The notes below the pieces were generated by a model. It was not told the origin of the DNA. It saw only the letters and a program-made list of their open reading frames with translations, and ran no database searches. Made by a program: the position numbers and the translations under genes. Positions 6,044 to 31,378 of a stretch of DNA of 44,964 nt are shown here, piece by piece; positions within the stretch are counted from its first letter, which is position 1; every line of letters starts with the position of its first letter. This DNA is from Candidatus Gastranaerophilales bacterium (GTDB lineage Bacteria; Cyanobacteriota; Vampirovibrionia; Gastranaerophilales; Gastranaerophilaceae): positions 1 to 44,964 of the forward strand of contig CALVEN010000010.1 of assembly GCA_944326585.1 (NCBI GenBank). Direction: 5' to 3'.

Positions 6044-6374
6044 AGGCATTATAACTGGATTTCAGCTCTTTTTAAATTTATATTTACATTTCGTTACATT
6101 TGATGTATAGGTCAGTATTTTCCATAAAAACTATTATCGGAAGTTATTTTTATTTATTTTTTCAGAGCCTCCGGCGGGTGCTGCGCGCACGGCGGCAACT
6201 TGTCTTGGATTTGGACGACTCGCAAAAGCGTGGTTTTGCTCGTCAGGACGAGTATCGCTGCGCTCACTCTAGTCCAAATCCGCTTGGTGGCAAAAGCGAC
6301 GCAAAACCACCGCACGCTGCGTTCACTAATAACTTGTACGCCTCAACATAAAGGCGTGTAAACTCGCTCATGTC

Positions 6375-6395
6375 ACCCTGAACTTGTTTCAGGGT
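6375..6395. repeat. Short REP-like hairpin, copy 1
   Basis: ACCCTGAA (6375-6382) pairs with TTCAGGGT (6388-6395) over a five-base loop. A related hairpin with two compensated base-pair changes lies at 44705-44725. Confidence 0.7.
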
Positions 6396-6528
6396 CTCTT
6401 ATACTTTACCGCTCAGACAATACACGCCTATGAAGATTGTTTCGGCTACAGTTATTGTTCACTCCGCTATTGCGGTATTAATGCTGCGTAGCAGCTCCGC
6501 GCCGTGATTATAGGCGCGGTATGAGATT

Positions 6529-6598
6529 GCAGTATTTTAGCCCCTCTCCTGTCCTTCGGACATCCTCTCCCCAAAGGGGCGAGGGATAAAATACTGCA
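6529..6598. repeat. Long compound hairpin with TTCG loop
   Basis: GCAGTATTTTA (6529-6539) pairs with TAAAATACTGC (6588-6598). Inside, GTCC-TTCG-GGAC forms a small tetraloop hairpin, and CCCC/GGGG and CCTC/GAGG segments extend the fold. Confidence 0.65.
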
Positions 6599-6673
6599 AC
6601 GGCACGTAGTGCGCCCGTTAGGGCTTGAGCAATCCAAAGGATTGCAAATAAAAATGCGTGTTTTTCTTTTTCG

Positions 6674-6717
6674 GTTCACTTTTTCTTTTTGCATCGCTAC
6701 AAAAAGAAAAAGTGAAC
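6674..6717. repeat. Perfect 18-bp stem hairpin
   Basis: GTTCACTTTTTCTTTTTG (6674-6691) and its exact reverse complement (6700-6717) flank the eight-base loop CATCGCTA. It lies about 65 bases past the end of the RNase HIII-like gene and could act as a transcription or mRNA end for it. Confidence 0.75.
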
Positions 6718-6782
6718 ATAAAGACATACCGATAATAGTTTTTATGTATAGACAATGCAGCATCAGCAATAGTTTATGTAAC

Positions 6783-13244: not shown

Positions 13245-14351
13245 TTAATCAAATAACTTTAAGCATTTATCTTGAATATCTAAGGCAATATCTTTAGCAG
13301 ATTTTTCCTTAAACCCTATATTTTTTGCAACCGCTAAAATATCATCCAAATCAGGATTTTTGCCTTCGCCGTTAATCGTTGTTGCATGTTCTCCGTTAAA
13401 AGAAGAACTGTAAGTCAGGTCATACGCGGGAGATAGGTGCCATTCTTTTTTATTGCCATCGTAAAGATAAGAAAAATTCTTTGAATGGTCATCTTTATTA
13501 TGTGCAAACACATTGAAACACATCAGCCTGAATAAGTGCTCAATATCTTCATAATTTCTTGTAAGCTCAAGCGTAAGCTTCATCAAAATATTGTAATCCA
13601 GATTAGGAAGCCTGTGACTTGTTTCTAACAGTCCGCTTGCTGATACCATATGAATTTTTCTGCCGTTTTTACGGTCAAACCTTTTTACCCCAAAATACCC
13701 CGAACAAATTTTTGATGAAAAAAGCCTTGTTTCCGGCATATCTATTCCGCAATCTTTTGCGCATAATGAATATTGATACTCTTTTTCGCCAATATTTTTA
13801 GGGTCAAAAGATGACGGGAATTTAATTATCCAGTCTTCGTTATCTATAGAAGTTAAAATTTTAGGCCTTGCACCGCCGGATGAACCGCCAAGTTGAAAAA
13901 GTTCATCTAAGTTAGCCGAATCTTGTGATTCCAGTATTTTGGAACACTCTTGAGCAAGAATGTCATAATCGCAAATTTTGTTTTCCGTTTCAAATATGTG
14001 TTCAGGCTTATAAGTCAAGGCACCCATCCCACTTTTCTGAACAACAGCAAGACGATTAAGATTATCAATTTCAGCAGGATTTATTTTGTTTTTCAAAAAC
14101 AATCTGTCAACAAGCAACCGTCCCCAACCGTCAGGCAGACTGTCATTAAAAACGCCAAACAATCCGCCAAAAGGTTCGTATTTAGGGAAAAAAACTTTCT
14201 TGACAAGGGGTAGACTAAAGGGCGAAATGCTAAAACCATTATTTAGCCAGTCAGAATCATATTCAAAAGCAACAACCCTTTCGGGAGTTTTTGCAAGAGT
14301 TCCGACTAAAATATCATTATAAAATACTTTTAAATATTTATAGTTGTCCAT
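13245..14351 (-). CDS. hipA: HipA-family serine/threonine kinase toxin
   Basis: The toxin of a HipBA-type toxin-antitoxin pair. Characterised relatives phosphorylate glutamyl-tRNA synthetase and stall translation; the target here is unknown. The 368 residues show the HipA N-terminal subdomain (YNDILVGTLAKTPERVVAFEYD, SISPFSLPL, GLFGVFNDSLPDGWG) and the kinase core: WIIKFPSS for the ATP lysine, AHNKDDHSKNFSYL for the catalytic Asp/Asn, and LSPAYDLTYS for the DFG-like Asp. The kinase appears intact. The start overlaps hipB by 14 bases. Confidence 0.9.
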   Translation of the reverse strand: MDNYKYLKVFYNDILVGTLAKTPERVVAFEYDSDWLNNGFSISPFSLPLVKKVFFPKYEPFGGLFGVFNDSLPDGWGRLLVDRLFLKNKINPAEIDNLNRLAVVQKSGMGALTYKPEHIFETENKICDYDILAQECSKILESQDSANLDELFQLGGSSGGARPKILTSIDNEDWIIKFPSSFDPKNIGEKEYQYSLCAKDCGIDMPETRLFSSKICSGYFGVKRFDRKNGRKIHMVSASGLLETSHRLPNLDYNILMKLTLELTRNYEDIEHLFRLMCFNVFAHNKDDHSKNFSYLYDGNKKEWHLSPAYDLTYSSSFNGEHATTINGEGKNPDLDDILAVAKNIGFKEKSAKDIALDIQDKCLKLFD

Positions 14352-14622
14352 TTATGACCTCATCAATGGAAGTGTAGCTTTTTTGCGTAAATAAATTTTC
14401 CAAATCCCCTTCTAAATTGAGAGCAATCAGAATTTTTATAAAAGAATTCAAAGAAATTTCATACTTTGATTCAAACCTTTTGATAGAACCAAGGCTGACA
14501 CCCGATTTTGAAGCAAGCTGAATTTGTGAAATCTTAAGTTTTTTACGTTGCTGCTTAATTTTTTCAACTAATTCTTTTGCTATTTCATTAGGAGTTTTAG
14601 GGTTAAACAAAAAACTGTTCAT
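14338..14622 (-). CDS. hipB: HipB-like XRE antitoxin
   Basis: The 94-residue helix-turn-helix partner of HipA. The DNA-binding segment is about residues 28-55 (ISQIQLASKSGVSLGSIKRF). It should neutralise the kinase and repress its own operon. Two palindrome-like sites overlap and lie just upstream of the ATG (14622-14682), which supports autoregulation. The first gene of the pair, as expected for an antitoxin. Confidence 0.88.
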   Translation of the reverse strand: MNSFLFNPKTPNEIAKELVEKIKQQRKKLKISQIQLASKSGVSLGSIKRFESKYEISLNSFIKILIALNLEGDLENLFTQKSYTSIDEVINGQL

Positions 14623-14682
14623 AGATAATATATTATACTATTTTTATTAAAAAGTCAATATTTAGATAATATATTATCTAAA
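14621..14682 (-). promoter_or_regulatory. HipB operator pair
   Basis: A perfect 22-bp palindrome occupies 14661-14682, centred on ATAATATATTAT. A partial copy (TAGATAATATATTATACTA) lies at 14622-14640 against the start codon. The centre-to-centre distance is about 40 bases, near four helical turns. A TATAAT hexamer for hipB lies inside the proximal copy. Confidence 0.75.
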
Positions 14683-14705
14683 AAGATATACAATCTTCCC
14701 CAAAA

Positions 14706-14740
14706 CAAAATACAACAAAATGAAGTTGTGTTGTATTTTG
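14706..14740. repeat. Inverted repeat upstream of the element
   Basis: CAAAATACAAC (14706-14716) and GTTGTATTTTG (14730-14740) can form an 11-bp stem, with further CCCC/GGGG pairing outside it. No T run follows, so this is not a clear terminator. Otherwise the 285-base gap between hipB and the recombinase holds only the phased array listed next. Confidence 0.5.
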
Positions 14741-14811
14741 GGGTAAAAGTTTGTGGGTAGGGGTGAATGAATTTTTGCAGGCGGAAGTATATTCTGAACA
14801 TTGCTGAAATT

Positions 14812-14861
14812 TTTGAACATTTTTTGAACGCTGTTTAAATGTCGTTTAAACGGTGTTTAAA
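14812..14861. repeat. Array of five GTTYAAA half-sites spaced ~11 bp
   Basis: TTTGAAC begins at 14812 and 14823, and GTTTAAA at 14833, 14844 and 14855. The two types are reverse-complement variants of one half-site, and the spacing is 10-11 bases throughout, about one helical turn. The array lies 70 bases before the recombinase. Likely roles are recombinase arm sites or a regulator's operator. Confidence 0.7.
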
Positions 14862-14931
14862 TTTTGTGTCATTAGACTTTACTTTTTATATGGAAGAAGC
14901 AATCATTGTCTGTGATTAGACGAGTTTGAAA

Positions 14932-15471
14932 ATGAATGTAGTACAACCTATAAAAAAGCTAGAAGATATTCAAAAGATTAAAAAATATTTGGCAAAAAAG
15001 CCAAGAGATGCATTGCTTTTTAGTTTTGGAATAAATACGGGACTTAGAATATCAGATATATTATCGCTTGATGTAAGAGATGTAAAAGACAGAGATTATA
15101 TTGAAATAAGAGAGAAAAAGACGAATAAGTATAAGAAATTTCCGCTTAATAGGTTTTTGAAAGAGGAGATTGATGTATTTGTAGAAGGATTGCCCGTAGA
15201 ACAACCGCTTTTTTATACTCAAAAACATTGCAGGCTCGATAGAGCACAGGCATATAGAATTTTGAATATGGCAGCACAAGCAGTTGGGGTGAAGGAAAGA
15301 ATTGGAACACATACACTAAGGAAGACATTCGGGTATCATCATTATAAAAAATATAATGATATAGTACTCCTGCAAAAAATATTTAACCACTCCTCTCCAT
15401 TAGTAACACTTCGCTACATCGGCATCGAACAAGACACAATCGATGAAAGCTATATGAATTTTTATTTATGA
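14932..15471 (+). CDS. Small tyrosine recombinase / integrase
   Basis: A 179-residue phage-integrase-family protein consisting of little more than the catalytic domain. It shows LFSFGINTGLRISDILSL (first catalytic Arg), HTLRKTFGYHHY (His-x-x-Arg) and HSSPLVTLRYIG (His and the catalytic Tyr in RYIG). The arm-binding and most of the core-binding regions are absent, so it may need a partner or act on short sites. ATG 14932 is preferred; a TTG two codons earlier is possible. It overlies no hsdS inverted repeats, so it is more likely to move the element than to shuffle hsdS. Confidence 0.85.
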   Translation: MNVVQPIKKLEDIQKIKKYLAKKPRDALLFSFGINTGLRISDILSLDVRDVKDRDYIEIREKKTNKYKKFPLNRFLKEEIDVFVEGLPVEQPLFYTQKHCRLDRAQAYRILNMAAQAVGVKERIGTHTLRKTFGYHHYKKYNDIVLLQKIFNHSSPLVTLRYIGIEQDTIDESYMNFYL

Positions 15472-15493
15472 TAAACTTATAAAAAAGGGGTTT

Positions 15494-15610
15494 ATGGCGT
15501 TAATAGAAACAGAGCTTGAAGTTATTAATATTAAGGATTTAAAAAATATTAAAATTCCTGATTATCAAAGACCATATTTTTGGAGTGTAGAGTCTGTAAA
15601 TACTATGTAA
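15494..15610 (+). pseudogene. N-terminal remnant of a DUF262 (GmrSD/ParB-like) gene
   Basis: Thirty-eight codons beginning MALIETELEVINIKDLKNI and continuing IPDYQRPYFWSVESVNTM before a stop. The I-P-x-Y-Q-R-P-Y-x-W motif marks the start of the DUF262 nuclease domain found in GmrSD-like anti-phage proteins. AAAAGGGG lies before the ATG. Everything past the tryptophan helix is missing, and the stop is 22 bases from the end of the retron reverse transcriptase, so retron arrival or a linked deletion probably removed the rest. Confidence 0.75.
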
Positions 15611-15631
15611 AACTCAAGATATTTTTTACAT

Positions 15632-16606
15632 TTATGATTTAATCATTTTATTTAATGTTTTTAAAATTATATGCTCAGATATATTGTGCTTTTTACAAAT
15701 CGCAAGGGCATATTTTTTTATTTTTTCTCCGTAATCATCTTCAATAGAAATAACAAAAGCTATTTGACCTATTAATTTATCATTATTAGTTTTATTTTTA
15801 ACTATACAGAAATAAAGTTCTTTTCGGATGTTTCTTTTTAATTCTTTAGAAACTTTTATTTGATTATTATTAATAGTTATACCTGTAACTTTTTTATGCC
15901 AAGGTTCTATGATAAATTTTGTTTTTCTTGTATTAATTTGTAAATTAAAAGATTTTGAACGGTAAGGTGATATTAAATTTTCTATATTTTCTTTGATTGT
16001 CATTAGTTCTTGTTTATTATTTGAAGAAAAAAACAAATCATCCGCATATCTAGTATATTTAATATCTCTTTCTTTACAATAATAACTAATGCTATCATCT
16101 AGCTGAGAGCAAACTAAATTCGATAAATATGGAGAACAAATTCCACCTTGAGGAAGCTCTTTACAATAAGTGCATAATTCTGCTAAAATTTCAGATATTT
16201 TCTCAGAATAACCTATATCAATGAATAAATATCTTATTTTATCATATTTAATACTTTGAAAAAAATTACAAAAATCGAACTTCAAAAGATATGAGCTGTT
16301 TTGATGAATCTTTGCATTTTCCAACAAACCATTTTTGCCTTTTACAAAAGCCATTGCTGCGTCGGAGCAAGGAATTTTTTCTAAAATTTCTTTTAGTATA
16401 ATTTTTTGAGCCATTCTTAAATATTTTTTTGGAGCATTAATTATTCTTTTATCTTTAGAATGTTTTTTAGGAATTTTAAATGAGACATATTGTAAAGATT
16501 TTAACATGAAAAACTTATTCAACTGCTTATTAGTAAAAAGAAGCAAATGATTTAAGTCATTCATATTATCTAATTTTGGAAGTTTTAATAATTCAAGTTT
16601 ATCCAT
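15632..16606 (-). CDS. Retron reverse transcriptase
   Basis: Copies part of its own RNA into the msDNA of the retron. The 324 residues carry the catalytic RYADDLFF (about residue 187), PQGGICSPYLSNLV, and both retron hallmarks: NAKIH (the NAxxH motif, about 97-101) and VTG (about 239-241) followed by KVSKELKRNIRKELY in the thumb. There is no maturase or integrase domain, so this is neither a group II intron nor a DGR enzyme. It is encoded directly downstream of its msr-msd RNA and the effector, on one strand. The length is typical of retron enzymes. Confidence 0.93.
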   Translation of the reverse strand: MDKLELLKLPKLDNMNDLNHLLLFTNKQLNKFFMLKSLQYVSFKIPKKHSKDKRIINAPKKYLRMAQKIILKEILEKIPCSDAAMAFVKGKNGLLENAKIHQNSSYLLKFDFCNFFQSIKYDKIRYLFIDIGYSEKISEILAELCTYCKELPQGGICSPYLSNLVCSQLDDSISYYCKERDIKYTRYADDLFFSSNNKQELMTIKENIENLISPYRSKSFNLQINTRKTKFIIEPWHKKVTGITINNNQIKVSKELKRNIRKELYFCIVKNKTNNDKLIGQIAFVISIEDDYGEKIKKYALAICKKHNISEHIILKTLNKMIKS

Positions 16607-16618
16607 GATTATAAAAAA

Positions 16619-16792
16619 AATCGTTATTTTTCTTACTTAGTACGGTTTTAAAAATTGAGCAAAGACTTTTGCGAGATTTTTAAAACCGGACTGTGTCTTC
16701 CAACAGTCTTTAATTATCTTTACGAAGACGCCATCATCCTCAGACAAAATTTATTTTATACAATTTTGTTATATCTAAGAAAAATAACGATT
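16619..16792 (-). ncRNA. Retron msr-msd RNA
   Basis: The gap between effector and reverse transcriptase begins and ends with a 17-bp inverted repeat (16776-16792 and 16619-16635), the a1/a2 pair. Read leftward, a1 ends CTTA and is followed by G16775, a candidate branching guanosine. Then come msr hairpins: ACAAAATT/AATTTTGT (16769-16744) and GACTGT/ACAGTC (16708-16689), whose loop GAAGAC could also pair with GTCTTC at 16729-16724. The msd part is one long hairpin with a 13-bp stem (16643-16655 with 16676-16688) and an inner five-bp GCAAA/TTTGC stem. a1 overlaps the effector stop codon. Confidence 0.9.
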
Positions 16793-17660
16793 AATATCTA
16801 CAACCTATTATAGCTGAAATTATTTCATTGTAAATATCTTTATCATTTTTATTTAAAATTTCACAGATAATATTTTCTGCTTTTTTAGTTATACGAATTT
16901 TATCATCAACTTTTTTGATAAAATTTTCATTAAACAATAATTTTTTTGTTGATGTGAATATTGTATCAAAAAAATTTACATCTTTATTTAAATAATCAAC
17001 AAGTAAATATCTAGTGTAATTAGATAATTTAACCAGAGAAATTTCTTTGAAAAAGTATATTAATAATGCAATAAAATAAAATAATCCCATTAAATTATCA
17101 ATACTTCTTGTATTTCTATTGCTTATAGCAACTTCTTTAAATTTAGATTTTAATTTCTTGATTAACGAACTCTTATTTGAATTATTATAATAATATACTG
17201 AATTTATAAATTTTTTCTCCATATATTTTATTGGACCAAGACTTATAAATGATTTCGAATTTCTGAAATTTTCATGGTTCAAAATTATCAACTTATTTTT
17301 TAATTCCTCAGCATTAGTAAAAGCACCTAATTCACAAACGGACCCCCAACTTTCACAAGCAATGCATATAAAATCAACTTGAGACGCTAACCAATTTTCT
17401 AAAGTTAAATAATCAGCATTTTTATTCATTTTAAAATAATCTTCAAAAATAGCTTCTGGATAGAAAATTCTAACAAAAGGAACTCGTTCAAAATTTTCTT
17501 TTAAAAAATTTCTTAAATTTAGTTCCTCGGTACTACCACCACAAAGGAATATATCTACTTGATTTTTCTGAAAATCTGTATAAATAAATTCGTAAATTTT
17601 TACTAATAAATCAATTTCTTTAATAGAAGGTTTATCACCATAATTTATTGCAACTGTCAT
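16791..17660 (-). CDS. Retron effector, nucleoside deoxyribosyltransferase-like with C-terminal wHTH
   Basis: The toxic arm of the retron. The N-terminal domain (about residues 1-155) is NDT/TIR-like: DIFLCGGS near the start and ESWGSVCELGAF (about 103-114) with the Glu expected at the active site. The C-terminal part (about 170-289) is helical and ends in a winged-helix-like stretch (KVDDKIRITKKAENIICEIL). In type II-A retrons such as Eco1, the related effector is held by RT-msDNA and attacks a nucleotide cofactor, reportedly NAD, once phage disturbs the complex. ATG 17660 is chosen: TATTAT lies exactly six bases upstream; a GTG at 17675 overlaps that promoter. Confidence 0.85.
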   Translation of the reverse strand: MTVAINYGDKPSIKEIDLLVKIYEFIYTDFQKNQVDIFLCGGSTEELNLRNFLKENFERVPFVRIFYPEAIFEDYFKMNKNADYLTLENWLASQVDFICIACESWGSVCELGAFTNAEELKNKLIILNHENFRNSKSFISLGPIKYMEKKFINSVYYYNNSNKSSLIKKLKSKFKEVAISNRNTRSIDNLMGLFYFIALLIYFFKEISLVKLSNYTRYLLVDYLNKDVNFFDTIFTSTKKLLFNENFIKKVDDKIRITKKAENIICEILNKNDKDIYNEIISAIIGCRY

Positions 17661-17666
17661 TTTTTT

Positions 17667-17672
17667 ATAATA
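17667..17672 (-). promoter_or_regulatory. -10 element of the retron operon, leaderless spacing
   Basis: TATTAT, then AAAAAA, then ATG 17660. The whole retron (effector, RNA, RT) probably starts from here. It faces away from hsdM. Confidence 0.45.
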
Positions 17673-17770
17673 CACAAAAAATTCTTTTTTAGAAACCTAA
17701 TTAATCATAAAAATGGAGGATTTACCATATTTACATTTCTTAATATATTTAATATAAAATGAGGTATAGT

Positions 17771-19357
17771 ATGGGTTTTGATTTGAAAGATTTTCAGAAT
17801 AAGCTATGGAAAACAGCTGATGATTTACGTGCTAATTCCAGTTTGAAATATAATGAGTTTTCTACTCCTGTATTAGGATTGATATTCTTGCGTTTTGCAG
17901 ATTATCGTTTTCAAAAAGCAAAACCTGAGATAGAAAAATTAAAATCTACCGCCTCTCGTAGAGCGTTTGATGAGAAAAATGCTTATCAAGCAAGAGGAGT
18001 TTTATTTGTCCCTAAAAAAGCCTCTTATAAATATCTTTTAAATCTTCCTGAAGGTGAAAGTGCAGGTAGTGCATTAAACGAAGCTATGTCATTAATGGAA
18101 AACGAAAACTCTATTCTTAAAGGAGTTTTGCCTAAAAATTATTTAAGAATCCCTGATGACTTATTAGTTTCAACAATGAAAATCTTTAATGATGTTGAGT
18201 TTGACCGCAACAATGGTGATATATTTGGTAAAGTTTATGAATTCTTCTTAGGTAAATTTGCAAGCTCAGAAGGACAAAAAGGTGGAGAATTCTATACACC
18301 TACATGTTTGGTAAAACTACTTGTTGAAATTATGAAGCCATTTCATGGTAATGTTTATGACCCAGCATGTGGTTCGGGCGGTATGTTTGTTCAAACTGCA
18401 GAGTTTGCCAAAAGAGAAAATAAAGACTCTGATAAATCTGTTAACGATTTGATAACTGTTGAAGGTCAAGAAAAAACAGAAGAAACTGTTAGATGGTGTA
18501 AAATGAACCTTGCAGTCCACGGTCTTGAAGGTGATGTTAAACAAGCAAACAGTTTTTATGAAGATGTATTTAACTCAGTAGGTAAATATAATTTTGTTCT
18601 AGCAAATCCTCCATTTAACGTTGATGGGGTAGATAAAGAGAGATTGAAAGGTGATAAAAGATTCCCATTCGGATTACCAAAAGCCGATAACGCTAACTAT
18701 CTGTGGATTCAAATGTTTTACTCTGCACTAAAGACTCCAGAGAATGGGGAAAACTCTCGTGCAGGATTTGTAATGCCAAATTCTGCAAGTGATGCTAGAC
18801 AAACAGAACAGACTATTCGAGAAAAGATTATCCAAGACAATGCCGTTGATGTAATGGTATCAGTTGGCTCAAATATGTTTCATAACGTAACTTTACCTTG
18901 TACCCTTTGGTTTTTGGATAAAGGAAAGAAAAATACCGATAGAAAAGATAAAGTACTTTTCTTAGATGTAAGAGAAATTTATACTCAAATAGATAGAGCT
19001 CATAGAGAATTCACTGATGAACAAATAGAATTTATTACAAATATTGTCAAGTTATATAGAGGGGAAGCTCCTGAATACAAATGGGGTAGTAAAAAACTAA
19101 CCCTTGAACATTTTCCTGATGAAAAATATAAAGATATAAAAGGTCTTTGTAAAGTTGCAACTATTACAGACATAGAAAAACAAGGATGGAGCTTAAATGC
19201 AGGACGTTATGTAGGAGTAAAAGAAGTCGAAGAAGAAGACTATATCTTCGAAGAAAAACTCCAAGAGTTGAACTCTGAACTAGAAAAGTTAAATTCTGAA
19301 TCCAAAGACCTTGAAGAAAAGATTGCACATAATATAAAACAATTGTTAGGTGTGTAA
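17771..19357 (+). CDS. hsdM: Type I restriction-modification methyltransferase subunit
   Basis: Methylates adenine within the site chosen by HsdS; two copies join one HsdS. The 528 residues have the helical HsdM N domain ([23 protein letters not shown]), the AdoMet motif [10 protein letters not shown] (about residue 198), the catalytic NPPF (about 279) and a C-terminal coiled coil ([22 protein letters not shown]) that should contact HsdS. ATG 17771 is preferred because GAGGT lies seven bases upstream; ATG 17759 contains that site. First gene of the operon hsdM-hsdS-x-y-z-hsdR. Confidence 0.95.
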
Positions 19358-19358
19358 G

Positions 19359-20633
19359 ATGGTAAATAAATGCTATAAAAAACTATCCGATATTTGCTCA
19401 TTAATAGCAGATTGTGTCAATAAAACCGCTCCAAAAGTTGATTTTGTTACACCGTATAAAATGCTACGAACGACTAACATAAAAAATGGATACATTGATT
19501 TTGAAAATGTTAGTTATGTTACAAAAGAAATATTTGAAAAATGGACTAGGAGGTGTCTTCCTCAATATGGAGATATTATTTTAACAAGAGAAGCTCCAGT
19601 TGGAGAAATAGGACGTTTTAATATAGACTCAGATAATTATTTTTTAGGTCAACGATTATTTTTATATAGAGCGAATCCTGAGTTGTTGGATTGGAATTAT
19701 TTGGCATATGCATTACTGAGTCCTGAAATGAAAGGCATATTGTCTGGGATTTCTAATGGTTCTACAGTTGCACATATAAAAGTTCCAGATGCTGAACATT
19801 TAAAAATCCCTTATTTCCCAATAAAATTTCAAAGGAAAATTGGTAAAATTTTATCAAACTATGATGATTTGATAGAGAATAACAACAGGCGTATAAAGAT
19901 ATTAGAGGAGATGGCACAGAAGATATATAAAGAGTGGTTTGTAGATTTCAAATTCCCCGGACACGAAACCACAATATTCAAAGATTCCCCTCTAGGTAAA
20001 ATACCAAATGATTGGGAGGTAAAAAAAGTTGTTGAATTATCTACATTATCAAAAGGAAAATCTTATAAAAGTTCTGAATTGGTTGATAAAAAAGATGGTT
20101 TACCTTTTTTAAATTTAAAATGTGTTGAAAGAGATGGCGGATTTAAAAGAGAAGGTTTAAAGTGGTTCTGTGGAAAGTATAATGATAACCAAGTTGTTTT
20201 ACCTGAAGATATAATTATGGCAGTTACAGATATGACTCAAGAAAGGAAATTAGTTGCTAGACCTGCAAGAATTCCTCATAACTGGTATAAAAAATATATT
20301 ATGTCTATGGATTTAGTTAAATTAGTTGCTAATAATGATATAAATAAAACGTACCTTTATTCGTTGTTAAAATATTCTAACTTTTCAGATGAAGTAAAGA
20401 ATCATGCAAATGGTGTCAATGTATTGCATCTTAATCCTCAAAATATTGAACAATTTGAACTTGTTGTTGCAAGTGAACCACTAAGAAATAATTTTGGGGA
20501 ATTTGCTAAAAGAATATTTAATCAAATAGATGTTTTATATTTAAAAAACGAAAACTTAAAACAAACACGTGATGTATTGCTTCCTCGCCTAATCTCCGGC
20601 GAAATTAACGTTGAAAATATGGAGGTGTTGTAA
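19359..20633 (+). CDS. hsdS: Type I restriction-modification specificity subunit
   Basis: Sets the DNA sequence recognised by the restriction and modification complexes. The 424 residues hold two target-recognition domains (about 1-155 and 215-375), each followed by a conserved helical region: NNRRIKILEEMAQKIYKEWF and NENLKQTRDVLLPRLISGEI. The second recognition domain starts at LGKIPNDWEVKKV, the usual boundary. Both halves look complete. It begins one base after the hsdM stop. I found no second or inverted hsdS fragment, so there is no sign of specificity switching here. Confidence 0.93.
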   Translation: MVNKCYKKLSDICSLIADCVNKTAPKVDFVTPYKMLRTTNIKNGYIDFENVSYVTKEIFEKWTRRCLPQYGDIILTREAPVGEIGRFNIDSDNYFLGQRLFLYRANPELLDWNYLAYALLSPEMKGILSGISNGSTVAHIKVPDAEHLKIPYFPIKFQRKIGKILSNYDDLIENNNRRIKILEEMAQKIYKEWFVDFKFPGHETTIFKDSPLGKIPNDWEVKKVVELSTLSKGKSYKSSELVDKKDGLPFLNLKCVERDGGFKREGLKWFCGKYNDNQVVLPEDIIMAVTDMTQERKLVARPARIPHNWYKKYIMSMDLVKLVANNDINKTYLYSLLKYSNFSDEVKNHANGVNVLHLNPQNIEQFELVVASEPLRNNFGEFAKRIFNQIDVLYLKNENLKQTRDVLLPRLISGEINVENMEVL

Positions 20634-20641
20634 AAGAGCTG

Positions 20642-21112
20642 TTGTTTTCAATAATTAATTTTTTCTTAAGTTTTCAGCATTTGGTCGTTTTTGCAGGTAC
20701 AATTGCAGTGTTATTATTTATTGTAAAAAGAAATATTATAATGAAATTTTTTGAAAAATATATACATACCATTTGGTTTATATTTGTGTTTTCAACAACA
20801 ATGTATTATTGCTGTAAAAATTGGGCTGTGATTGTTGCAGCAAAGCCTTATGAATGTAATTTTATATTGTTTTGCTTTTTGCTTATTCTTGCCCTTTTGC
20901 CGTATATTTCAAATTTTAAAATTTTTAATTTCGAAGGAAAAATTAATAACCCACTTTGCCCTACAAAGAAATTGGCAGAAGAAAATCTAACTAAAATTGA
21001 AGATAAGACTCCTATTCAAAACAATGTGAATTTGAATATTCAAGTTAACCAAGAAGAATACAAAAAACAAATAGCAAAAATATTGCAAGAAAAGGGGGTT
21101 AAAAATGAATAA
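20642..21112 (+). CDS. Small membrane protein inside the type I operon, unknown
   Basis: A 156-residue protein with three membrane helices (about residues 10-28, 42-60, 75-93) and a charged cytosolic tail that ends in a helix (NIQVNQEEYKKQIAKILQEK). The frame opens with TTG 20642, eight bases after hsdS; the first ATG is at 20741 and would remove the first helix, so I keep TTG with some doubt. Its last codons overlap the start of the next gene. I do not recognise it. Its place between hsdS and hsdR suggests a role linked to restriction, or simply cargo. Confidence 0.6.
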   Translation: MFSIINFFLSFQHLVVFAGTIAVLLFIVKRNIIMKFFEKYIHTIWFIFVFSTTMYYCCKNWAVIVAAKPYECNFILFCFLLILALLPYISNFKIFNFEGKINNPLCPTKKLAEENLTKIEDKTPIQNNVNLNIQVNQEEYKKQIAKILQEKGVKNE

Positions 21113-21401
21113 CCCAATATATCAAATATTTAATACTCAAAAAACAAATATTCAAAATGTAAAATTAATAACAGATGCAGCCAATAAAGGTATTGAACTA
21201 ATGAATCGTGAAATTGATTATGCTTTATTGAATGCTTATCAAAATTATATTATTTCTATTTTAAATATTGTTTCTAATAATACAAAAACTAATTATATTG
21301 ATTTATATAATAGATTTTGTATTTCAAATTGTTATTTGTCATGCTATGATCAATTAAAAAGAAATATAGAGTTTTTAATTGATTTGGCAAAACGGTTATA
21401 A
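21105..21401 (+). CDS. Small helical protein of unknown function
   Basis: Ninety-eight residues, almost entirely predicted helix, Asn- and Tyr-rich, without a signal peptide or membrane segment. AGGGGG lies just before the ATG, which overlaps the preceding stop codon by eight bases, so the two genes are translationally coupled. A 128-base gap follows before the next gene. No family recognised. Confidence 0.6.
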   Translation: MNNPIYQIFNTQKTNIQNVKLITDAANKGIELMNREIDYALLNAYQNYIISILNIVSNNTKTNYIDLYNRFCISNCYLSCYDQLKRNIEFLIDLAKRL

Positions 21402-21529
21402 TTGAATAATTTTATCTAGATAAATATTGTTTTATACTAATTATTCTTTTTAAGTTATAAATACAAATTATGCATTTTCTGAAATATCTGTTTAAATATT
21501 TACTAATATATTTATAGTATTATTGAATT

Positions 21530-22759
21530 ATGAATAATCATGGGTATTTATTTTGTAATTACGACTTAAACCAAATTTTAGAAAAATCTAAACAAAGTAT
21601 TCAAGAAAAAATACAATCTGAATCTAATGAATATATCGCAAATGTTAATCAAGATGATTACTTATCTTGTATTCAAGCTTCATTTAATATCGAATGTCCA
21701 ATATTAAATGAAGAGAAAATTAGTATTGAAAAGAAAGAAGCTAGAATAGAAAAATATAATCGTTATTTTTCTGAAACAGGATATGTTGACGGAATTATTA
21801 TAAAAGTTACAATCCCTTTTACTGGTGATCCGGATTTATTTTTAGCTAGAGCAAATACTTTTTCATCTAGGCATCCTATAGGTGACGTTTCTAATCATCA
21901 AGTAACTCTCTCTTTTCCACTTGCGATATATGAGCTTGAAGAAACTGATATAAACCAAAGAATTCAAGACGAAATTAATATTATAAAAAAATATTTAAGT
22001 TTCGTAGAAAAAGATTTAAATGCTTTTAATAGTTCTATTAAAACAATCGCGAAAGCTGCAATAGATTATAAAATTGACAAATATAACAAAATAAACAGTT
22101 TTGTAAAAGGAATTAAATATGAATTAAAAACAAATGAACACATTCCAGAAACATATAAAATCCCAAATGTTGTTAGAAAAATAGAAATAATAAGACCAGA
22201 ATTAAAAAAGTTAATTCCAGAACCGGTTTTAGAAGATGAAGAATATAATCATATATTAAAAATCTGTTCAGATATGTCATTAGTAATGGAACGAAGTCCA
22301 AAATCTTTTGCTCAAATGGATGAAGAAGCTTTAAGAACTCATTTCCTTGTTCAGTTAAATGGTCATTATCAGGGACAAGCTACTGGTGAAACATTTAATT
22401 CTAATGGAAAAACAGATATTTTGATAAGAAATGATAACCAAAATGTTTTTATTGCTGAGTGCAAATTTTGGAAAGGTAAAAAGGGCTATTTATCTACAAT
22501 TGACCAATTATTAGGATATGTAACTTATCGAGATACAAAAACTGCGATATTCATGTTTGTGAAAAATAAAAATTTTACAGAAGTTTTCCAGCAAATGAAA
22601 GAAACTGTAACTGAACATCCAAATTTTATAAAATTTATTGATTCTTATACACCTCCAAAAGATTCTTCTGCATTTAGATGTGAATTTAAAAACCAAAATG
22701 ATGAAGAAAAACATTTTTATATTACGTTTATGGCTTTTTGCATTCCTGATGGAGATTAG
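21530..22759 (+). CDS. PD-(D/E)XK-like nuclease within the type I operon
   Basis: A 409-residue protein. About residues 1-190 are an uncharacterised helical and beta region (a central stretch reads VKVTIPFTGDPDLFLARANT with I for the first V). The C-terminal third resembles a restriction-endonuclease fold: NSNGKTDILIRNDNQNVFI supplies the Asp, and AECKFWKGKK (about 308-317) the E-x-K, followed by DQLLGYVTYRDTKTAIFMF. This layout is seen in stand-alone nuclease domains of anti-phage proteins. It lies between hsdS and hsdR with its own upstream gap, so it may have a separate promoter. Function unproven. Confidence 0.65.
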   Translation: MNNHGYLFCNYDLNQILEKSKQSIQEKIQSESNEYIANVNQDDYLSCIQASFNIECPILNEEKISIEKKEARIEKYNRYFSETGYVDGIIIKVTIPFTGDPDLFLARANTFSSRHPIGDVSNHQVTLSFPLAIYELEETDINQRIQDEINIIKKYLSFVEKDLNAFNSSIKTIAKAAIDYKIDKYNKINSFVKGIKYELKTNEHIPETYKIPNVVRKIEIIRPELKKLIPEPVLEDEEYNHILKICSDMSLVMERSPKSFAQMDEEALRTHFLVQLNGHYQGQATGETFNSNGKTDILIRNDNQNVFIAECKFWKGKKGYLSTIDQLLGYVTYRDTKTAIFMFVKNKNFTEVFQQMKETVTEHPNFIKFIDSYTPPKDSSAFRCEFKNQNDEEKHFYITFMAFCIPDGD

Positions 22760-22810
22760 TAATATTGTTTATTAACAAAATTTATGTTAGTCTGAATTTG
22801 GAGAATATGA

Positions 22811-25800
22811 ATGCATAAATTATCAGAAGAAGCATTTGAAAAAGACTTAATGCAGGAATGTAAAGATTCACTAGGGTTTGAACTTTTTGACGCAACCTAT
22901 GAAATCGTTGGTTCTGATGATTCTACTTTTGGGAGACAAACAACAGAAGAAGTTATTTTATCTAAAAACCTAAGAAATGCATTGGAAAAATTAAATCCTG
23001 ATTTACCTCAAGAGGCTATTGATAATGCATTTTATGAATTAACTCAAAATTTATCAAATAAAACAGAAATTGGTGCTAACCAGTTTATTTATAAAATTAT
23101 TAAAGATGGGGTTAAAGTTCAATTTAAAGATAACAACGGAATTGATTCCAGTGATATTGTGAAAGTTATTGACTTTAATAGACCTAAAGAAAATGATTTT
23201 TTACTCGTTAGGCAGTTTAAGATCTCAGGAGAAAGATACAATTGTAGAGCTGATTTGATTTTATTTGTAAACGGTTTACCTCTTGTATTCATTGAATTAA
23301 AAGCAACTCATAAACACATAGAAAATGCTTTTTATAATAACATCACTCATTATAAAAAAGAAATTCCGCAAGTATTCTGGTATAACGCTTTTATTGTGGT
23401 ATCTAATGGAACAGATGCTAAATTCGGAACTATTACTTCTAAATGGGAACATTTTTCAGATTGGAAGAAAATAAGTAATGAAAATGAAAAGGGTATAATT
23501 TCTGCTGATATTTTATTGAAAGGAATGTGTTCTCCAGATAATCTACTCGATATTATTGAAAATTATACACTATATCAAGAAACAAAGGGCGGAACAATAA
23601 AAATTTGCGCAAAAAATCACCAATTTTTGGGTGTTAATACTGCTATTGAGAATTTTGAAAGCAATAAAGATGGGAAATTAGGAGTTTTTTGGCATACCCA
23701 AGGTAGTGGTAAAAGTTTTTCAATGATATTTTTTGTTCAAAAAATACTGAGAAAAGTCAAAGGAAATTGGACATTTCTAATCGTTACAGATAGAACAGAC
23801 TTAGATGATCAAATATATAAAAACTTTGTTTCAACAGGAGCTGTGACAGAACAAAATGTTCAAGCTACAACAAGAGAACATTTAAAACAACTTTTAAGAG
23901 AAGATCATAGAACAGTGTTTACTATGATTCAAAAATTTGGTACTGAAGAAAAAGGACAAAGTTTTGAAAAAATTTCTGATAGAGATGATATTATTGTAAT
24001 TACTGATGAAGCCCACCGAACTCAGTATGGAACGCTCGCTATGAACATGCGAGAAGCCTTGCCAAATGCAAAATTTATAGCATTTACAGGCACTCCATTA
24101 ATGAAGGATGATGAAAAAACTAAACTTGTATTTGGTGATTATGTTAGTAAATACACTTTCAAACAATCTATTGAAGATCATGCAACTGTTCCATTGTATT
24201 ATGAAGCTCGAATTCCCCGAATGCAGCTTACAAATGATGAATTAGAAGAGGATTTACAAAATATCATTGATTCTGCAGATTTTACTCCCGAACAAGAGGA
24301 ACAGTTTGAAAAAGAATATGTAAATATGTATCAGGTAATTACAAGGGAAGATAGGCTTGATGCAATTGCAAAAGATGTTGTTGAACATTTTATGAACCGC
24401 GGTTTTATGGGAAAAGCTATGTATGTTGCAATCGATAAAGCAACTGCGGTCAAAATGTATAATAAAGTCAAAAATGAATGGGGAAAATATATACAAAAAC
24501 TAAAAAATAAACTTAAAACAGCAAATGATGATCTTAAAGAAATTATCAAAAAAGATATCGATTATATGGAAGAAACCGATATGGCTGTCGTTGTGTCCCC
24601 TTCACAAAATGAAATTGAACAATTAAAACAAAAAGGCGTTGATATTACTCCTCACAGAACAAGAATGAAAAATGAGGATTTAGCAACAAACTTTAAAAAT
24701 GAAAAACATCCGCTACGCCTAGTTTTTGTTTGTGCAATGTGGGTTACGGGTTTTGATTGTCCTACTATTTCGACATTGTATCTTGATAAAATTTTAAAAG
24801 AACATACTTTAATGCAAACAATTGCCAGAGCTAATAGAGTATCAGAAGGAAAGTTTAATGGTCTAATTGTTGATTACATTGGGATATTCAAAGCATTGCA
24901 AAAAGCTTTGGCGATTTATGGTGAGCCAACAGAACCTGCAGATAATGATGAAGATCCGGCAGAAACTAAGACAAAATTAATTGAGCTTCTTGAAAATGAA
25001 TCGAAAAAGATGAAGAATTTACTTGATTCTAAGGGAATTAATGTGGATAAAATATTTGATACAAGAGCATTAGAATGTATTAAAAATACAGAAGAAGCTG
25101 TAAGTAAATTATTGGAGAATGAAAAAACAAAAGAAGATTTCTTAAAATATACACAAAATTTAAAAATGTTATTCAAGGCTATATTACCAGATTCAGAAGC
25201 AAGAAGATATGCCAAATTAGTTTTTGTGTCTTCAGTGATTTATTCAAAAATAAAAGAAGCTTTAGTAGAATATGTAGACAAAACAGAAGTAAAAAGACTT
25301 GCACTGCAAGTAGAAGAGTTGTTAAATGAATCAATAAAACTAGCATCTTATAAAATTAATTCTGGAGAAAAATTAGATTTAAGTAAAATTAATTTTGAAG
25401 AACTTCAAAGACGAATTCTAAAAGAGAAAAAACTTGCATTATTAGAAAAATTAAAAGCATCTATAAGTTCTAAATTATCTTCGATGTTGAAACTAAATGA
25501 TATGAGAAAGCATTTTCAAGAGAAATTTGAACAAATTATTGAAGATTATAATAATGGTAAGTTAACTATGGAACAAATGTATGTACAGCTCGTTGCTTTA
25601 ACTAACCAGCTAACAGAAGAAGAAAAACGCCATTTGGATGAAAATTTATCAGAAGAAGAACTCGCAATTTTAGATATTTTAACAAAACCTGAGCCAAAGC
25701 TTTCCAAAAAAGAATTTGAGACTGTTAAATTAGCAGCACAAAAATTGGTAAAAGTAATAAAAAAAGAAAAATTAGTTTTGGATTGGCGCAAAAAACAATC

Positions 25801-25960
25801 AACAAGAGCTAAAGTAAAAGAAGCAATCGAAACAATTTGTGATGAGATATTACCTGAAATATATGATAAAGATTTATTCCAGAAAAAATGTAATTATTTA
25901 TACAACCACTTTTATGATCACTATAACAATTACAAAGACAATATTTATGATGTTGCATAA
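22811..25960 (+). CDS. hsdR: Type I restriction endonuclease subunit R
   Basis: The motor and nuclease of the type I complex; it translocates and cuts unmodified DNA. The 1049 residues show the N-terminal nuclease site (RADLILFVNGLPLVFIELKA, E-x-K near 161), Walker A QGSGKSF (about 299-303), DEAH near 398, AFTGTPL, VTGFDCPT and QTIARANR for the SF2 helicase, and a helical C-terminal region for HsdM/S contact. All catalytic motifs look intact. GGAG lies seven bases before ATG 22811. The operon can therefore encode an active system. Confidence 0.95.
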   Translation: MHKLSEEAFEKDLMQECKDSLGFELFDATYEIVGSDDSTFGRQTTEEVILSKNLRNALEKLNPDLPQEAIDNAFYELTQNLSNKTEIGANQFIYKIIKDGVKVQFKDNNGIDSSDIVKVIDFNRPKENDFLLVRQFKISGERYNCRADLILFVNGLPLVFIELKATHKHIENAFYNNITHYKKEIPQVFWYNAFIVVSNGTDAKFGTITSKWEHFSDWKKISNENEKGIISADILLKGMCSPDNLLDIIENYTLYQETKGGTIKICAKNHQFLGVNTAIENFESNKDGKLGVFWHTQGSGKSFSMIFFVQKILRKVKGNWTFLIVTDRTDLDDQIYKNFVSTGAVTEQNVQATTREHLKQLLREDHRTVFTMIQKFGTEEKGQSFEKISDRDDIIVITDEAHRTQYGTLAMNMREALPNAKFIAFTGTPLMKDDEKTKLVFGDYVSKYTFKQSIEDHATVPLYYEARIPRMQLTNDELEEDLQNIIDSADFTPEQEEQFEKEYVNMYQVITREDRLDAIAKDVVEHFMNRGFMGKAMYVAIDKATAVKMYNKVKNEWGKYIQKLKNKLKTANDDLKEIIKKDIDYMEETDMAVVVSPSQNEIEQLKQKGVDITPHRTRMKNEDLATNFKNEKHPLRLVFVCAMWVTGFDCPTISTLYLDKILKEHTLMQTIARANRVSEGKFNGLIVDYIGIFKALQKALAIYGEPTEPADNDEDPAETKTKLIELLENESKKMKNLLDSKGINVDKIFDTRALECIKNTEEAVSKLLENEKTKEDFLKYTQNLKMLFKAILPDSEARRYAKLVFVSSVIYSKIKEALVEYVDKTEVKRLALQVEELLNESIKLASYKINSGEKLDLSKINFEELQRRILKEKKLALLEKLKASISSKLSSMLKLNDMRKHFQEKFEQIIEDYNNGKLTMEQMYVQLVALTNQLTEEEKRHLDENLSEEELAILDILTKPEPKLSKKEFETVKLAAQKLVKVIKKEKLVLDWRKKQSTRAKVKEAIETICDEILPEIYDKDLFQKKCNYLYNHFYDHYNNYKDNIYDVA

Positions 25961-25982
25961 AGTTTGACTTTAGCAAACTTTT
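25959..25982 (+). terminator. Weak terminator after hsdR
   Basis: AAAGTTTG and CAAACTTT form an eight-bp stem around ACTTTAG, with only a short T run. It overlaps the hsdR stop codon. Confidence 0.45.
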
Positions 25983-25991
25983 AAGTGATGA

Positions 25992-26018
25992 ATACGACAC
26001 CTGAAAAGGAGGTCGTAT
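25992..26018 (+). promoter_or_regulatory. Hairpin masking the ribosome site of the 26017 gene
   Basis: ATACGAC (25992-25998) pairs with GTCGTAT (26012-26018). The loop holds AAGGAG and the stem includes the first two bases of the ATG. Such a fold would hold translation down until opened. Confidence 0.55.
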
Positions 26019-26241
26019 GAGTAAAAATAAGAAATACAAGATTAAACAAAAAGATTTTAGGAAGTTAGAAAAATTAGCTGAGCGGATTTATAACACAGTT
26101 GTTGTAATTGATTATTTTTGCAGGACTCAACAAGAGATTGAAGAGTTGTATAATCTTACTCCAGTCGTTGAAAATTTAAGACGAGATTCTGATACAGTAA
26201 ACGCTTATTTTATAAATTATCCTGACAACAAAAATTTTTAG
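26017..26241 (+). CDS. Small basic helical protein, unknown
   Basis: Seventy-four residues, Lys-rich at the start (MSKNKKYKIKQKDFRKLEKL) and helical, ending in YFINYPDNKNF. A strong AAGGAGGT lies right before the ATG, within the hairpin noted above. No family recognised; size and context suit an accessory gene of a mobile element, perhaps a regulator. It follows hsdR by 56 bases. Confidence 0.6.
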   Translation: MSKNKKYKIKQKDFRKLEKLAERIYNTVVVIDYFCRTQQEIEELYNLTPVVENLRRDSDTVNAYFINYPDNKNF

Positions 26242-26257
26242 ATGGTATTTAAAACTT

Positions 26258-26286
26258 GTTTTAATACCGTTCAAACAGTGTTCAAA
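26258..26286. repeat. Second phased half-site array
   Basis: GTTTTAA at 26258, GTTCAAAC at 26269 and GTTCAAA at 26280 repeat with exact 11-base spacing. The following TTGTGTC and the general layout match the array in front of the recombinase. It lies 95 bases before the 26381 gene. Confidence 0.6.
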
Positions 26287-26358
26287 AAATAAATTGTGTC
26301 TGAATGATACGTTTTGAGAGAGTTTGCTTGATATTTTACTCATTAAGAGTGATGAATG

Positions 26359-26384
26359 TCATTGCTGATAAGAGGTAGCAATGA
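26359..26384 (+). promoter_or_regulatory. Hairpin enclosing the ribosome site and start of the 26381 gene
   Basis: TCATTGCT (26359-26366) pairs exactly with AGCAATGA (26377-26384), which contains the ATG. The ten-base loop is GATAAGAGGT, carrying the ribosome-binding sequence. Confidence 0.6.
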
Positions 26385-26596
26385 TTGAATTAGGCAAAAA
26401 ATACAAACTAAAAAAGATTAGAGGTTTTGAAAACTCTGATAATGAGTATTACAAAGTAATTGGATTCTATAACTTCGACACTGTAATTTGTGAAAACGCC
26501 TACGGAGAAAGATTTGTATTTATGAAAGAGTTTTTAATAGACCCACAAAAGCCTGATAAAATCTATTCAGATTTAATACTTGAAAGGAAAGAATAA
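26381..26596 (+). CDS. Small protein of unknown function
   Basis: Seventy-one residues with a beta-rich look: YKLKKIRGF, YYKVIGFYNFDTVICEN and ERFVFMKEF suggest a small barrel. No membrane segment. It starts inside the hairpin noted above and its last base is the first base of the next gene's ATG. First of three tightly packed small genes (26381-27013). Confidence 0.6.
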   Translation: MIELGKKYKLKKIRGFENSDNEYYKVIGFYNFDTVICENAYGERFVFMKEFLIDPQKPDKIYSDLILERKE

Positions 26597-26796
26597 TGAC
26601 AGAAAAAGACTATGCACTTTATGGAACAAAGGTTTTGAATTTAAAGACACAAGAAATTGGCTTGCTAATTTGTATTTGGAAAAATAAGTTTGCCGATGCA
26701 GAGGTAGATTACGCAACTTGTGTTGATAAGCAAGGCAAAAGATATAATATAGAGCTTGATAACATACGAGGGTTTGAAGATGATTTTGAAAAATAA
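26596..26796 (+). CDS. Small protein of unknown function
   Basis: Sixty-six residues: MTEKDYALYGTKVLNLKTQE, then GLLICIWKNKF and a VDKQGKRYNIELDNI segment. The alternating strands and short turns suggest a small SH3- or KOW-like barrel, as in many phage and plasmid accessory proteins, but no family is identified. AAGGAAAG precedes the ATG, which overlaps the previous stop by one base; the 3' end overlaps the next gene by 17 bases. Confidence 0.55.
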   Translation: MTEKDYALYGTKVLNLKTQEIGLLICIWKNKFADAEVDYATCVDKQGKRYNIELDNIRGFEDDFEK

Positions 26797-27013
26797 ACTG
26801 ACGCGAGAATCTGTAGAAATAAATTATTCTGAATTTAGAAAAAAGTTTGCAAAAGAAATCCGAACTGCTTTTGAAAGTTATCGCAGAACACAATTAAATA
26901 AGTATTCTTATAACTTTAAAGATGACAACTCAATGGAATACAATTTCTATTTCCAATTACAATGGAACTTCAATCACTTTGGAAATTCTAATTGGTATAT
27001 TGAAAGAATGTAA
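26780..27013 (+). CDS. Small protein of unknown function
   Basis: Seventy-seven residues from ATG 26780 (MILKNKLTRESVEINYSEF), preferred over a TTG at 26756 because GAGGG lies eight bases upstream. A helix-rich basic N half is followed by an aromatic, Asn-rich end (FYFQLQWNFNHFGNSNWYIE). Unrecognised. Last gene before a 207-base gap that carries a third half-site array. Confidence 0.55.
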   Translation: MILKNKLTRESVEINYSEFRKKFAKEIRTAFESYRRTQLNKYSYNFKDDNSMEYNFYFQLQWNFNHFGNSNWYIERM

Positions 27014-27026
27014 ATTTTTAGCATTT

Positions 27027-27053
27027 ATTAAACAATTGTTAAACGGTATTTAA
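27027..27053. repeat. Third phased half-site array
   Basis: ATTAAAC at 27027 and GTTAAAC at 27038 are 11 bases apart, with a weaker TTTAA site at 27049. It closes the stretch 14.8-27.05 kb that opens with the similar array before the recombinase. The rest of the gap to 27220 is AT-rich without other visible signals. Confidence 0.45.
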
Positions 27054-27220
27054 TTACCATAATAGTTCTTTATTTATACATATAAATCTGTCATCAATAA
27101 AATTATTTTATAAAAACCTTTGTTTTATACATTTTTTAATGTTTTCTATCTTAAACATACTTATCTTTTGGCAATCCTTTATCATAAATGTGCATTGCAT
27201 ATTATTAATATGCCTAAATT

Positions 27221-31277: not shown

Positions 31278-31378
31278 TGAGATTAACCCATACAAATATT
31301 ATCATAAAATTGAAATTTAGTACAATTTTGAACCTGAAATTAACGTAATTATCAAAAATAGACTTTTATAATATGCAT

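What the first reader, a model, noticed from the sequence alone, without database searches (positions are those of the whole stretch)
16619..17660. Complete retron with readable msr-msd architecture
Effector, RNA and RT are contiguous on one strand. The RNA shows a 17-bp a1/a2 repeat, a candidate branch G right after a1, two msr hairpins and one long msd hairpin; the RT has both NAxxH and VTG. The a1 arm overlaps the effector stop codon, tying effector mRNA and ncRNA together. Type II-A retrons use NDT-like effectors; one in this lineage would be a distant example with its own msDNA fold.
Basis: partly seen in the sequence, partly recalled or inferred. Interest (0 to 1): 0.8.

Follow-up and report, generated by a model that had tools for sequence, protein, structure and literature searches.

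The report
A type II-A retron in Gastranaerophilales
This is an intact-looking anti-phage retron of an already known type, a reverse transcriptase with its folded template RNA and a probable NAD-destroying toxin, found in a little-studied group of bacteria related to cyanobacteria; it is a real but largely ordinary find.

Summary
On the minus strand lie an effector gene (17660/17675-16791), a folded RNA (16792-16619) and a reverse transcriptase (16606-15632). The 17-bp a1/a2 repeat is exact and has no equal in the window. Both proteins match PADLOC's type II-A models best (E 1e-98, 5e-75) and pass NCBIfam's St85 retron cut-offs; their nearest solved relatives are the RT and effector of retron Eco1/Ec86, whose mutated active-site Glu aligns with E115. 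Four other genomes of the order carry the same gene order, one with a broken effector. Against a diverged relative (RT 41% identical) a1/a2 keeps 14 of 14 compared pairs, three by changes on both sides. Corrections: the interval leaves out the RT; a third small hairpin exists; the 2-nt overlap of a1 with the effector stop is not conserved; and promoter-like sites 6-19 nt before a1 in 4 of 4 distinct loci of the order suggest that the RNA has its own promoter inside the effector's end. A new member of a known kind, with a near-identical copy in another genus and a seat in a variable slot before a type I R-M operon.

The parts
16791..17675 (-). NDT-like effector with a C-terminal part aligned to the Ec86 DNA-binding region (294 aa from GTG 17675; 289 aa from ATG 17660, my preferred start); predicted catalytic Glu = E115 in the 294-aa numbering
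   Evidence: PADLOC NDT_II-A PDLC02930 E 5.2e-75; NCBIfam NF038232 retron St85 family effector, 154.7 bits, cut-off 100; phmmer to the Ec86 effector chain E 5e-22; ELG at 115
16807..16834 (-). promoter-like site TTTACA-16-TATAAT (11 of 12) inside the effector's 3' end, 14 nt before a1; candidate promoter of the ncRNA and RT
   Evidence: sites of 10-11 of 12 ending 6-19 nt before a1 also in G356, G162 and G223, each expected in 1.5-3.6% of Markov-1 sequences
16776..16792 (-). a1 arm of the ncRNA; overlaps the effector stop by 2 nt
   Evidence: exact 17-bp repeat; stop TAA 16793-16791
16775..16775 (-). candidate branch guanosine, inside TTAGATRTAAC, shared by own, G356 and G162
   Evidence: sequence and alignment; its role is inferred from known retrons
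16744..16769 (-). msr stem-loop 1 (8 bp)
   Evidence: fold; 2 of 6 compared pairs changed on both sides in G162
16723..16742 (-). msr stem-loop 2 (8 bp)
   Evidence: fold; 1 of 8 pairs changed on both sides in G356
16689..16708 (-). small third hairpin (7 bp) between msr and msd; which side of the boundary it belongs to is unknown
   Evidence: fold
16643..16688 (-). msd hairpin (13 bp plus an inner 5 bp), predicted reverse-transcribed part
   Evidence: fold; a 17-bp hairpin of different sequence sits at the same place in G162
16619..16635 (-). a2 arm of the ncRNA
15632..16606 (-). retron reverse transcriptase (324 aa; NAKIH, YADD, VTG), start 12 nt after a2
   Evidence: PADLOC RT_II-A PDLC02941 E 1.2e-98, next family RT_III-A 4.2e-74; NCBIfam NF038233 266 bits, cut-off 235; phmmer to the Ec86 RT E 2.9e-39

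Best explanation
A type II-A retron, acting as a three-part toxin-antitoxin system against phage. The ncRNA and RT are probably transcribed from a promoter inside the effector's 3' end, with read-through from the effector also possible. The RT binds the msr, starts at the 2'-OH of G16775 after a1 pairs with a2, and copies the msd hairpin into a short branched msDNA. RT, RNA and msDNA hold the NDT-like effector inactive. When a phage function damages or modifies the msDNA, the effector hydrolyses NAD+ (catalytic E115) and the infected cell stops growing. Shown here: genes, motifs, family membership, RNA fold and its conservation. Inferred from retrons Eco1, Asa1 and Squ1: msDNA synthesis, sequestration, NAD+ hydrolysis and the kind of trigger. 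The promoter rests on a consensus match.
For: Best matches to type II-A models for both proteins; NCBIfam cut-offs passed. Nearest solved relatives are the Ec86/Eco1 RT and effector; the chain of the Eco1 entry titled inactive effector E106A shows that the changed Glu aligns with ELG-115. RNA fold z -7.1, unique 17-bp repeat. In the three distinct RNAs compared (own, G356, G162) 14 of 14 inner a1/a2 pairs are kept, 3 with changes on both sides; 6 of 6 in msr stem 1, 2 such changes; own against G356, 8 of 8 in msr stem 2, 1 such change. Same gene order in 5 of 5 loci with a strong NDT hit, own included. RNA model R1 hits 4 of 383 genomes at E<=0.001, all NDT-retron genomes; own, G356 and G162 built the model and G360 shares the window's RNA, so this tests specificity only. 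The locus lies among other defence genes. NAD+ hydrolysis by Eco1: a passage in the introduction of PMC12405507. Triggering of II-A retrons Asa1 and Squ1 by a phage adenine methyltransferase: passages of PMC12548924.
Against: No msDNA, expression or phage data. Only three distinct RNAs could be aligned; own and G356 are identical in a1/a2, so that covariation rests on one diverged relative, whose effector is broken. The helices counted were the ones I picked from single-sequence folds; msr stem 2 of G162 and the third hairpin were not counted. The fifth locus, G223, has a different RNA that R1 misses at the genome threshold and scores at 20 bits locally, no better than unrelated stretches at 22-24 bits in the window (6673-6722) and L010. 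The AlphaFold model of the effector is poor (mean pLDDT 52.8), so the Foldseek hits to Eco1 (TM 0.30-0.34) add little beyond sequence. No Rfam retron match. No GATC, the motif noted for Asa1 and Squ1, is in the RNA. Phaeobacter and Thioclava relatives show no promoter-like site before a1 (0 of 2).
Confidence: 0.88

Rival explanations
1. A decayed or silent retron: the parts are recognisable but the system no longer works, as part of a wrecked integration site.
For: A relative shows decay: the effector of G162 is split into two frames. Beside the window's RT stand a short ORF (15494-15610) that looks like the start of a longer gene (read by eye) and an integrase with only its catalytic domain matched.
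Against: Both retron genes are open over full length with all motifs; the near-identical copy in G360 is also open, with 2 changed residues in the RT, 4 in the effector and 0 of 184 changes in the stretch between them.
Confidence: 0.08
2. The RNA fold is a transcription terminator or attenuator between two genes, not an msr-msd.
For: The a1/a2 stem is followed by a T run; one terminator-like site is called in the region, though on the other strand.
Against: The stem is AT-rich and encloses 140 nt with three further hairpins or more in a retron-like order; TTAGATRTAAC after a1 is shared by three sequences while the msd sequence is replaced and its hairpin kept; each of the four genome hits of the RNA model has it between an NDT and a retron RT.
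Confidence: 0.03
3. A retron whose effector does something other than NAD+ hydrolysis, for example true nucleoside transfer or regulation of DNA.
For: The ESPGS of the other four effectors aligned is ESWGS in own and G356; the C-terminal part is weakly conserved; identity to the Ec86 effector is only about 26%.
Against: E108, S109, G111, S112, E115, L116 and G117 are invariant in the six effectors aligned, from Gastranaerophilales to Rhodobacterales (the G162 row is the fragment of a broken gene).
Confidence: 0.12

Closest known systems
Retron-Eco1 (Ec86), type II-A
   Same: RT and NDT effector are the nearest solved relatives; catalytic Glu conserved; RNA with a1/a2, branch G after a1, msr hairpins and a long msd hairpin (plan of Eco1 recalled).
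   Different: About 26% effector identity; the ncRNA lies between effector and RT here, whereas in Eco1 it lies before the effector (recalled, not checked here); the Eco1 RNA itself was not compared.
Retron St85 family (NCBIfam NF038233 RT, NF038232 effector)
   Same: Both proteins pass the curated cut-offs.
   Different: No difference beyond sequence divergence was tested.
NDT retrons of Phaeobacter inhibens and Thioclava plasmids (L043, L044)
   Same: Same gene order, with 173- and 181-nt gaps that fold into a retron-like RNA.
   Different: Effector identity 24 and 26%; the Phaeobacter RT scores higher with RT_III-A than with RT_II-A models; both RTs lie outside the window's clade in the tree; no promoter-like site before a1.
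NDT retrons of phages and viral contigs (L042, L047, L048, L060, L061)
   Same: NDT effector and retron RT side by side.
   Different: Effector and RT overlap or abut, so the RNA cannot lie between them; their RTs form another clade.

Membership tests
Retron, type II-A | Retron RT with NAxxH, YxDD and VTG | tested here: met
   NAKIH 97, YADD 187, VTG 240; RT_II-A best model, 80 bits above the next, RT_III-A
Retron, type II-A | ncRNA with a1/a2 repeat, a G right after a1, msr hairpins and msd hairpin next to the RT | tested here: met
Retron, type II-A | NDT-like effector with DNA-binding C-terminus | tested here: met
   NDT_II-A over residues 16-287 of 289; the alignment with the Ec86 effector runs to residue 277 of both. 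The winged-helix part itself is not resolved in the poor model
Retron, type II-A | Catalytic glutamate of the effector (Eco1 E106) | tested here: met
   E115 aligned with the residue that is Ala in 8qbl
Retron, type II-A | RT groups with type II-A RTs in a tree | tested here: inconclusive
   The four distinct Gastranaerophilales NDT-associated RTs form one clade with 86/92 support; Ec86 was not among the 28 rows and deeper forks are weak
Retron, type II-A | Production of branched msDNA; phage defence; NAD+ hydrolysis | not testable with these tools
   needs experiments
Rfam msr (retron) family | match to a retron RNA model in Rfam | tested here: not met
   no retron family among matches at gathering score (window) or at E<=5 (16560-16850); that retron RNAs are very diverse is recalled
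Retron, type III-A | PRTase effector and III-A RT | tested here: not met
   RT_III-A 247.6 bits against 328.1 for RT_II-A, effector NDT_II-A; a III-A-like RT (L009, G351) is present elsewhere in the order

The most novel reading that the evidence does not exclude
The retron is a module of a shared defence cassette: it sits in an exchange slot just before hsdM, moves between genera with that R-M operon, and its msDNA senses DNA methylation or R-M inhibition, so that loss or abuse of the neighbouring methylase triggers suicide. Weak hints: its position, the methyltransferase triggers known for other II-A retrons, and one CCGTAC site in each of the three RNAs, picked post hoc.
Probability: 0.06. 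Interest if true: 0.6.

Novelty: new member of a known kind. Interest (0 to 1): 0.3.

Why it matters
It puts a type II-A retron with a conserved, readable ncRNA into Gastranaerophilales, non-photosynthetic relatives of cyanobacteria known mostly from metagenomes (recalled), and supplies diverged RNAs (own, G356, G162, G223) for tests of which parts of an msr-msd are constrained. The near-identical copy in another genus points to recent movement of the module.

Tried and rejected
Rfam found no retron RNA. Viral contigs gave no relative with the single RT; with the RT alignment, 14 loci, of which 3 (L046-L048) also held an NDT effector by my profile. A phylum draw gave no further NDT locus: 3 of 386 genomes, all three already seen. 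Two NDT hits in the order, G189 and G249 (E 8.9e-4 and 1e-4, 57 positions inside a 744-residue frame with a stop), were taken as chance, not counted among the five and not examined. An E. coli plasmid hit (L045) has only an RT fragment of 129 residues in frame and was left out of the layout comparison; H4 and most of the 17 phage records were not opened. The AlphaFold model was too poor for fold evidence. Over the whole stretch 15450-18000 promoter-like sites are not above chance, 17 against a mean of 19.7 in shuffles; only the site before a1 was followed, and I looked at it because it was the top match. A DNA search of E. coli with L046, meant to check the Eco1 gene order, found nothing. Mestre et al. 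2020, the classification paper (recalled), is not held. Paper searches for retron with Melainabacteria and with Gastranaerophilales gave 0 papers; retron with Cyanobacteria, phylogeny and effector gave 12, of which 8 were seen as a listing only.

Full report
What is there. The window is contig 10 of a 1.70-Mb genome (99.7% complete); two of the three named relatives of the RT in genome contigs are Candidatus Gastranaerophilales at 99 and 74% identity, the third a Smithella at 25%. On the minus strand, in order of transcription: effector 17675/17660-16791, RNA 16792-16619, RT 16606-15632.

Proteins. The RT carries NAKIH, YADD and VTG. Its best PADLOC model is RT_II-A (328 bits), then RT_III-A (248), and it passes NCBIfam's retron St85 RT cut-off. 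The effector has no Pfam match at E<=0.1 but matches NDT_II-A at 5.2e-75 and NCBIfam's St85 effector above cut-off. The nearest solved chains are the Ec86 RT (2.9e-39) and the Ec86 effector (5e-22). One Eco1 entry is titled as the inactive effector E106A; in the alignment of its chain the changed residue faces E115 of the window protein. E108, S109, G111, S112, E115, L116 and G117 are invariant in the six effectors aligned.

RNA. The a1/a2 repeat is 17 of 17 exact, and no other perfect inverted repeat of 14 bp or more was found in the window with seeds 60-300 nt apart. The region folds far better than its shuffles (z -7.1), although 26 of 1494 sampled stretches of the window fold as well or better. 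The fold gives a1/a2, two msr hairpins, a small third hairpin and a long msd hairpin. G16775 follows a1 in a stretch TTAGATRTAAC shared by own, G356 and G162.

Conservation. Of 383 genomes of the order 7 had an NDT_II-A hit at E<=0.001; 5 are strong, own included (G000, G360, G356, G162, G223), and 2 weak. RT homologues of any kind were in 81 of 383. The five strong loci have the order effector, gap, RT, with gaps of 184, 184, 190 and 292 nt in own, G360, G356 and G223; in G162 the effector frame is broken. Between own/G356 and G162 (RT 41% identical to own) the 14 inner a1/a2 pairs are all kept, 3 changed on both sides; msr stem 1 keeps 6 of 6 with 2 such changes; between own and G356 msr stem 2 keeps 8 of 8 with 1 such change. 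The msd hairpins of own and G162 share 21 of 48 alignment columns, yet both are long hairpins at the same place. A covariance model from these three hits 4 of 383 genomes at E<=0.001: own, G360, G356 (there also the opposite strand) and G162. G223 has another RNA and is missed there; locally it scores 20 bits, no better than unrelated stretches. The RNA evidence thus rests on few sequences.

Is the RNA tied to the effector mRNA? In own the stop overlaps a1 by 2 nt. In G356 a1 begins right after the stop. In G162 the last frame runs through a1 and stops at the TAG of CTTAG. The closeness is kept, the overlap is not. The best promoter-like match in 15450-18000 is TTTACA-16-TATAAT on the minus strand at 16834-16807, 14 nt before a1. 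Sites of at least 10 of 12 ending 6-19 nt before a1 are found in own, G356, G162 and G223, 4 of 4 distinct loci; each is expected in 30-72 of 2000 Markov-1 sequences; the Phaeobacter and Thioclava loci have none. Limits: the own and G356 sites lie in similar coding sequence and are not independent, the a1 of G223 was placed by me from its fold, and the test was made after the site was seen. So the RNA with the RT may well be transcribed from inside the effector gene.

Position and movement. G360, of another genus of the same family, holds a near-identical copy: 97.8% over 3.48 kb, up to the end of its contig on the hsdM side. Differences are unevenly spread: 11 in 2127 nt (15632-17758) but 57 in 1118 nt of hsdM start and integrase ORF (Fisher p 3e-17). 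Left out of that test: 3 in 160 nt between integrase and RT and 5 in 73 nt before the integrase ORF. With 4 changes in the RT and 5 in the effector, of which 2 and 4 alter residues, recent exchange is likelier than selection alone (inference). In 12 loci with a close hsdM and DNA reaching upstream (L068, L070-L080), and in L081 and L083, the match that runs through the hsdM start ends between window positions 17711 and 17736 (L069 begins inside hsdM; the weaker L084-L096 were not printed). None of the 15 loci searched besides G360's own copy (L068-L083 without L082) has the retron proteins there (tblastn), though L069, L072, L074 and L080 have little or no upstream DNA. In L081 an integrase 65% identical to the window's ends 120 nt before hsdM, and L080 shows 23 residues of its end. 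The place before hsdM therefore looks like a variable slot, filled by the retron here.

How it most likely works. By homology with Eco1: RT, RNA and msDNA form a complex that holds the NDT effector; on infection it is activated and destroys NAD+. That Eco1 forms filaments and acts by NAD+ hydrolysis I take from a passage in the introduction of PMC12405507. That the related II-A retrons Asa1 and Squ1 are triggered by a phage adenine methyltransferase, with GATC in their RNAs, is from passages of PMC12548924 (its section 6 read). The window RNA has no GATC; it has one GTAC. The trigger here is unknown.

Compared with what is known. The tested features of type II-A are met, except the tree, which is inconclusive without Ec86. 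Two layouts exist among the NDT retrons seen: RNA between effector and RT (the five loci, Phaeobacter, Thioclava, probably L046), and effector overlapping or abutting RT (L042, L047, L048, L060, L061). The window's layout is therefore not unusual. I found no paper on retrons in this lineage in the held library, but standard tools would annotate it.

Verdict. Real, correctly read in the main, and a new member of a known kind; interest 0.3.

Noticed in passing
window 13245-31295: Defence island: HipA-like gene (13245-14351) with a small neighbouring ORF, the retron, a type I R-M operon (17759-25960) with a PDC-S54 gene inside (21530-22759), and a HamA/HamB-like pair matching PADLOC's candidate PDC-M23A/B (27221-31295).
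   Followed up: partly
window 17711-17758, loci L068-L083: The stretch upstream of hsdM is a variable slot in related R-M operons; L068, L071, L076 and L077 carry there a divergent ORF of 346-376 aa with MTAIY.IEARD at or near its start; L068 and L071 were searched and have no Pfam family above cut-off.
   Followed up: partly
window 15632-17758 versus L002: The retron block is 99.5% identical between two genera while hsdM start and integrase are 96 and 94% identical: probable recent exchange of the module.
   Followed up: partly
window 15494-15610: Short 38-codon ORF beginning like a DUF262/GmrSD-type protein (IPDYQRPYFW; resemblance recalled, no search) and cut off beside the RT end: a likely gene remnant (read).
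   Followed up: no
L009 (G351): A retron with a III-A-like RT, an upstream frame that looks like a phosphoribosyltransferase (my reading, not searched) and its own folded RNA before the RT, in the same order of bacteria.
   Followed up: partly
window 6100-6740: Repeat-rich stretch with several strong hairpins, the best-folding part of the window; no Rfam match at gathering score.
   Followed up: no
ncRNAs of own, G356, G162: CCGTAC occurs once in each of the three RNAs, at a different place in G162, against 3 times in the whole 45-kb window on the + strand; picked post hoc.
   Followed up: no
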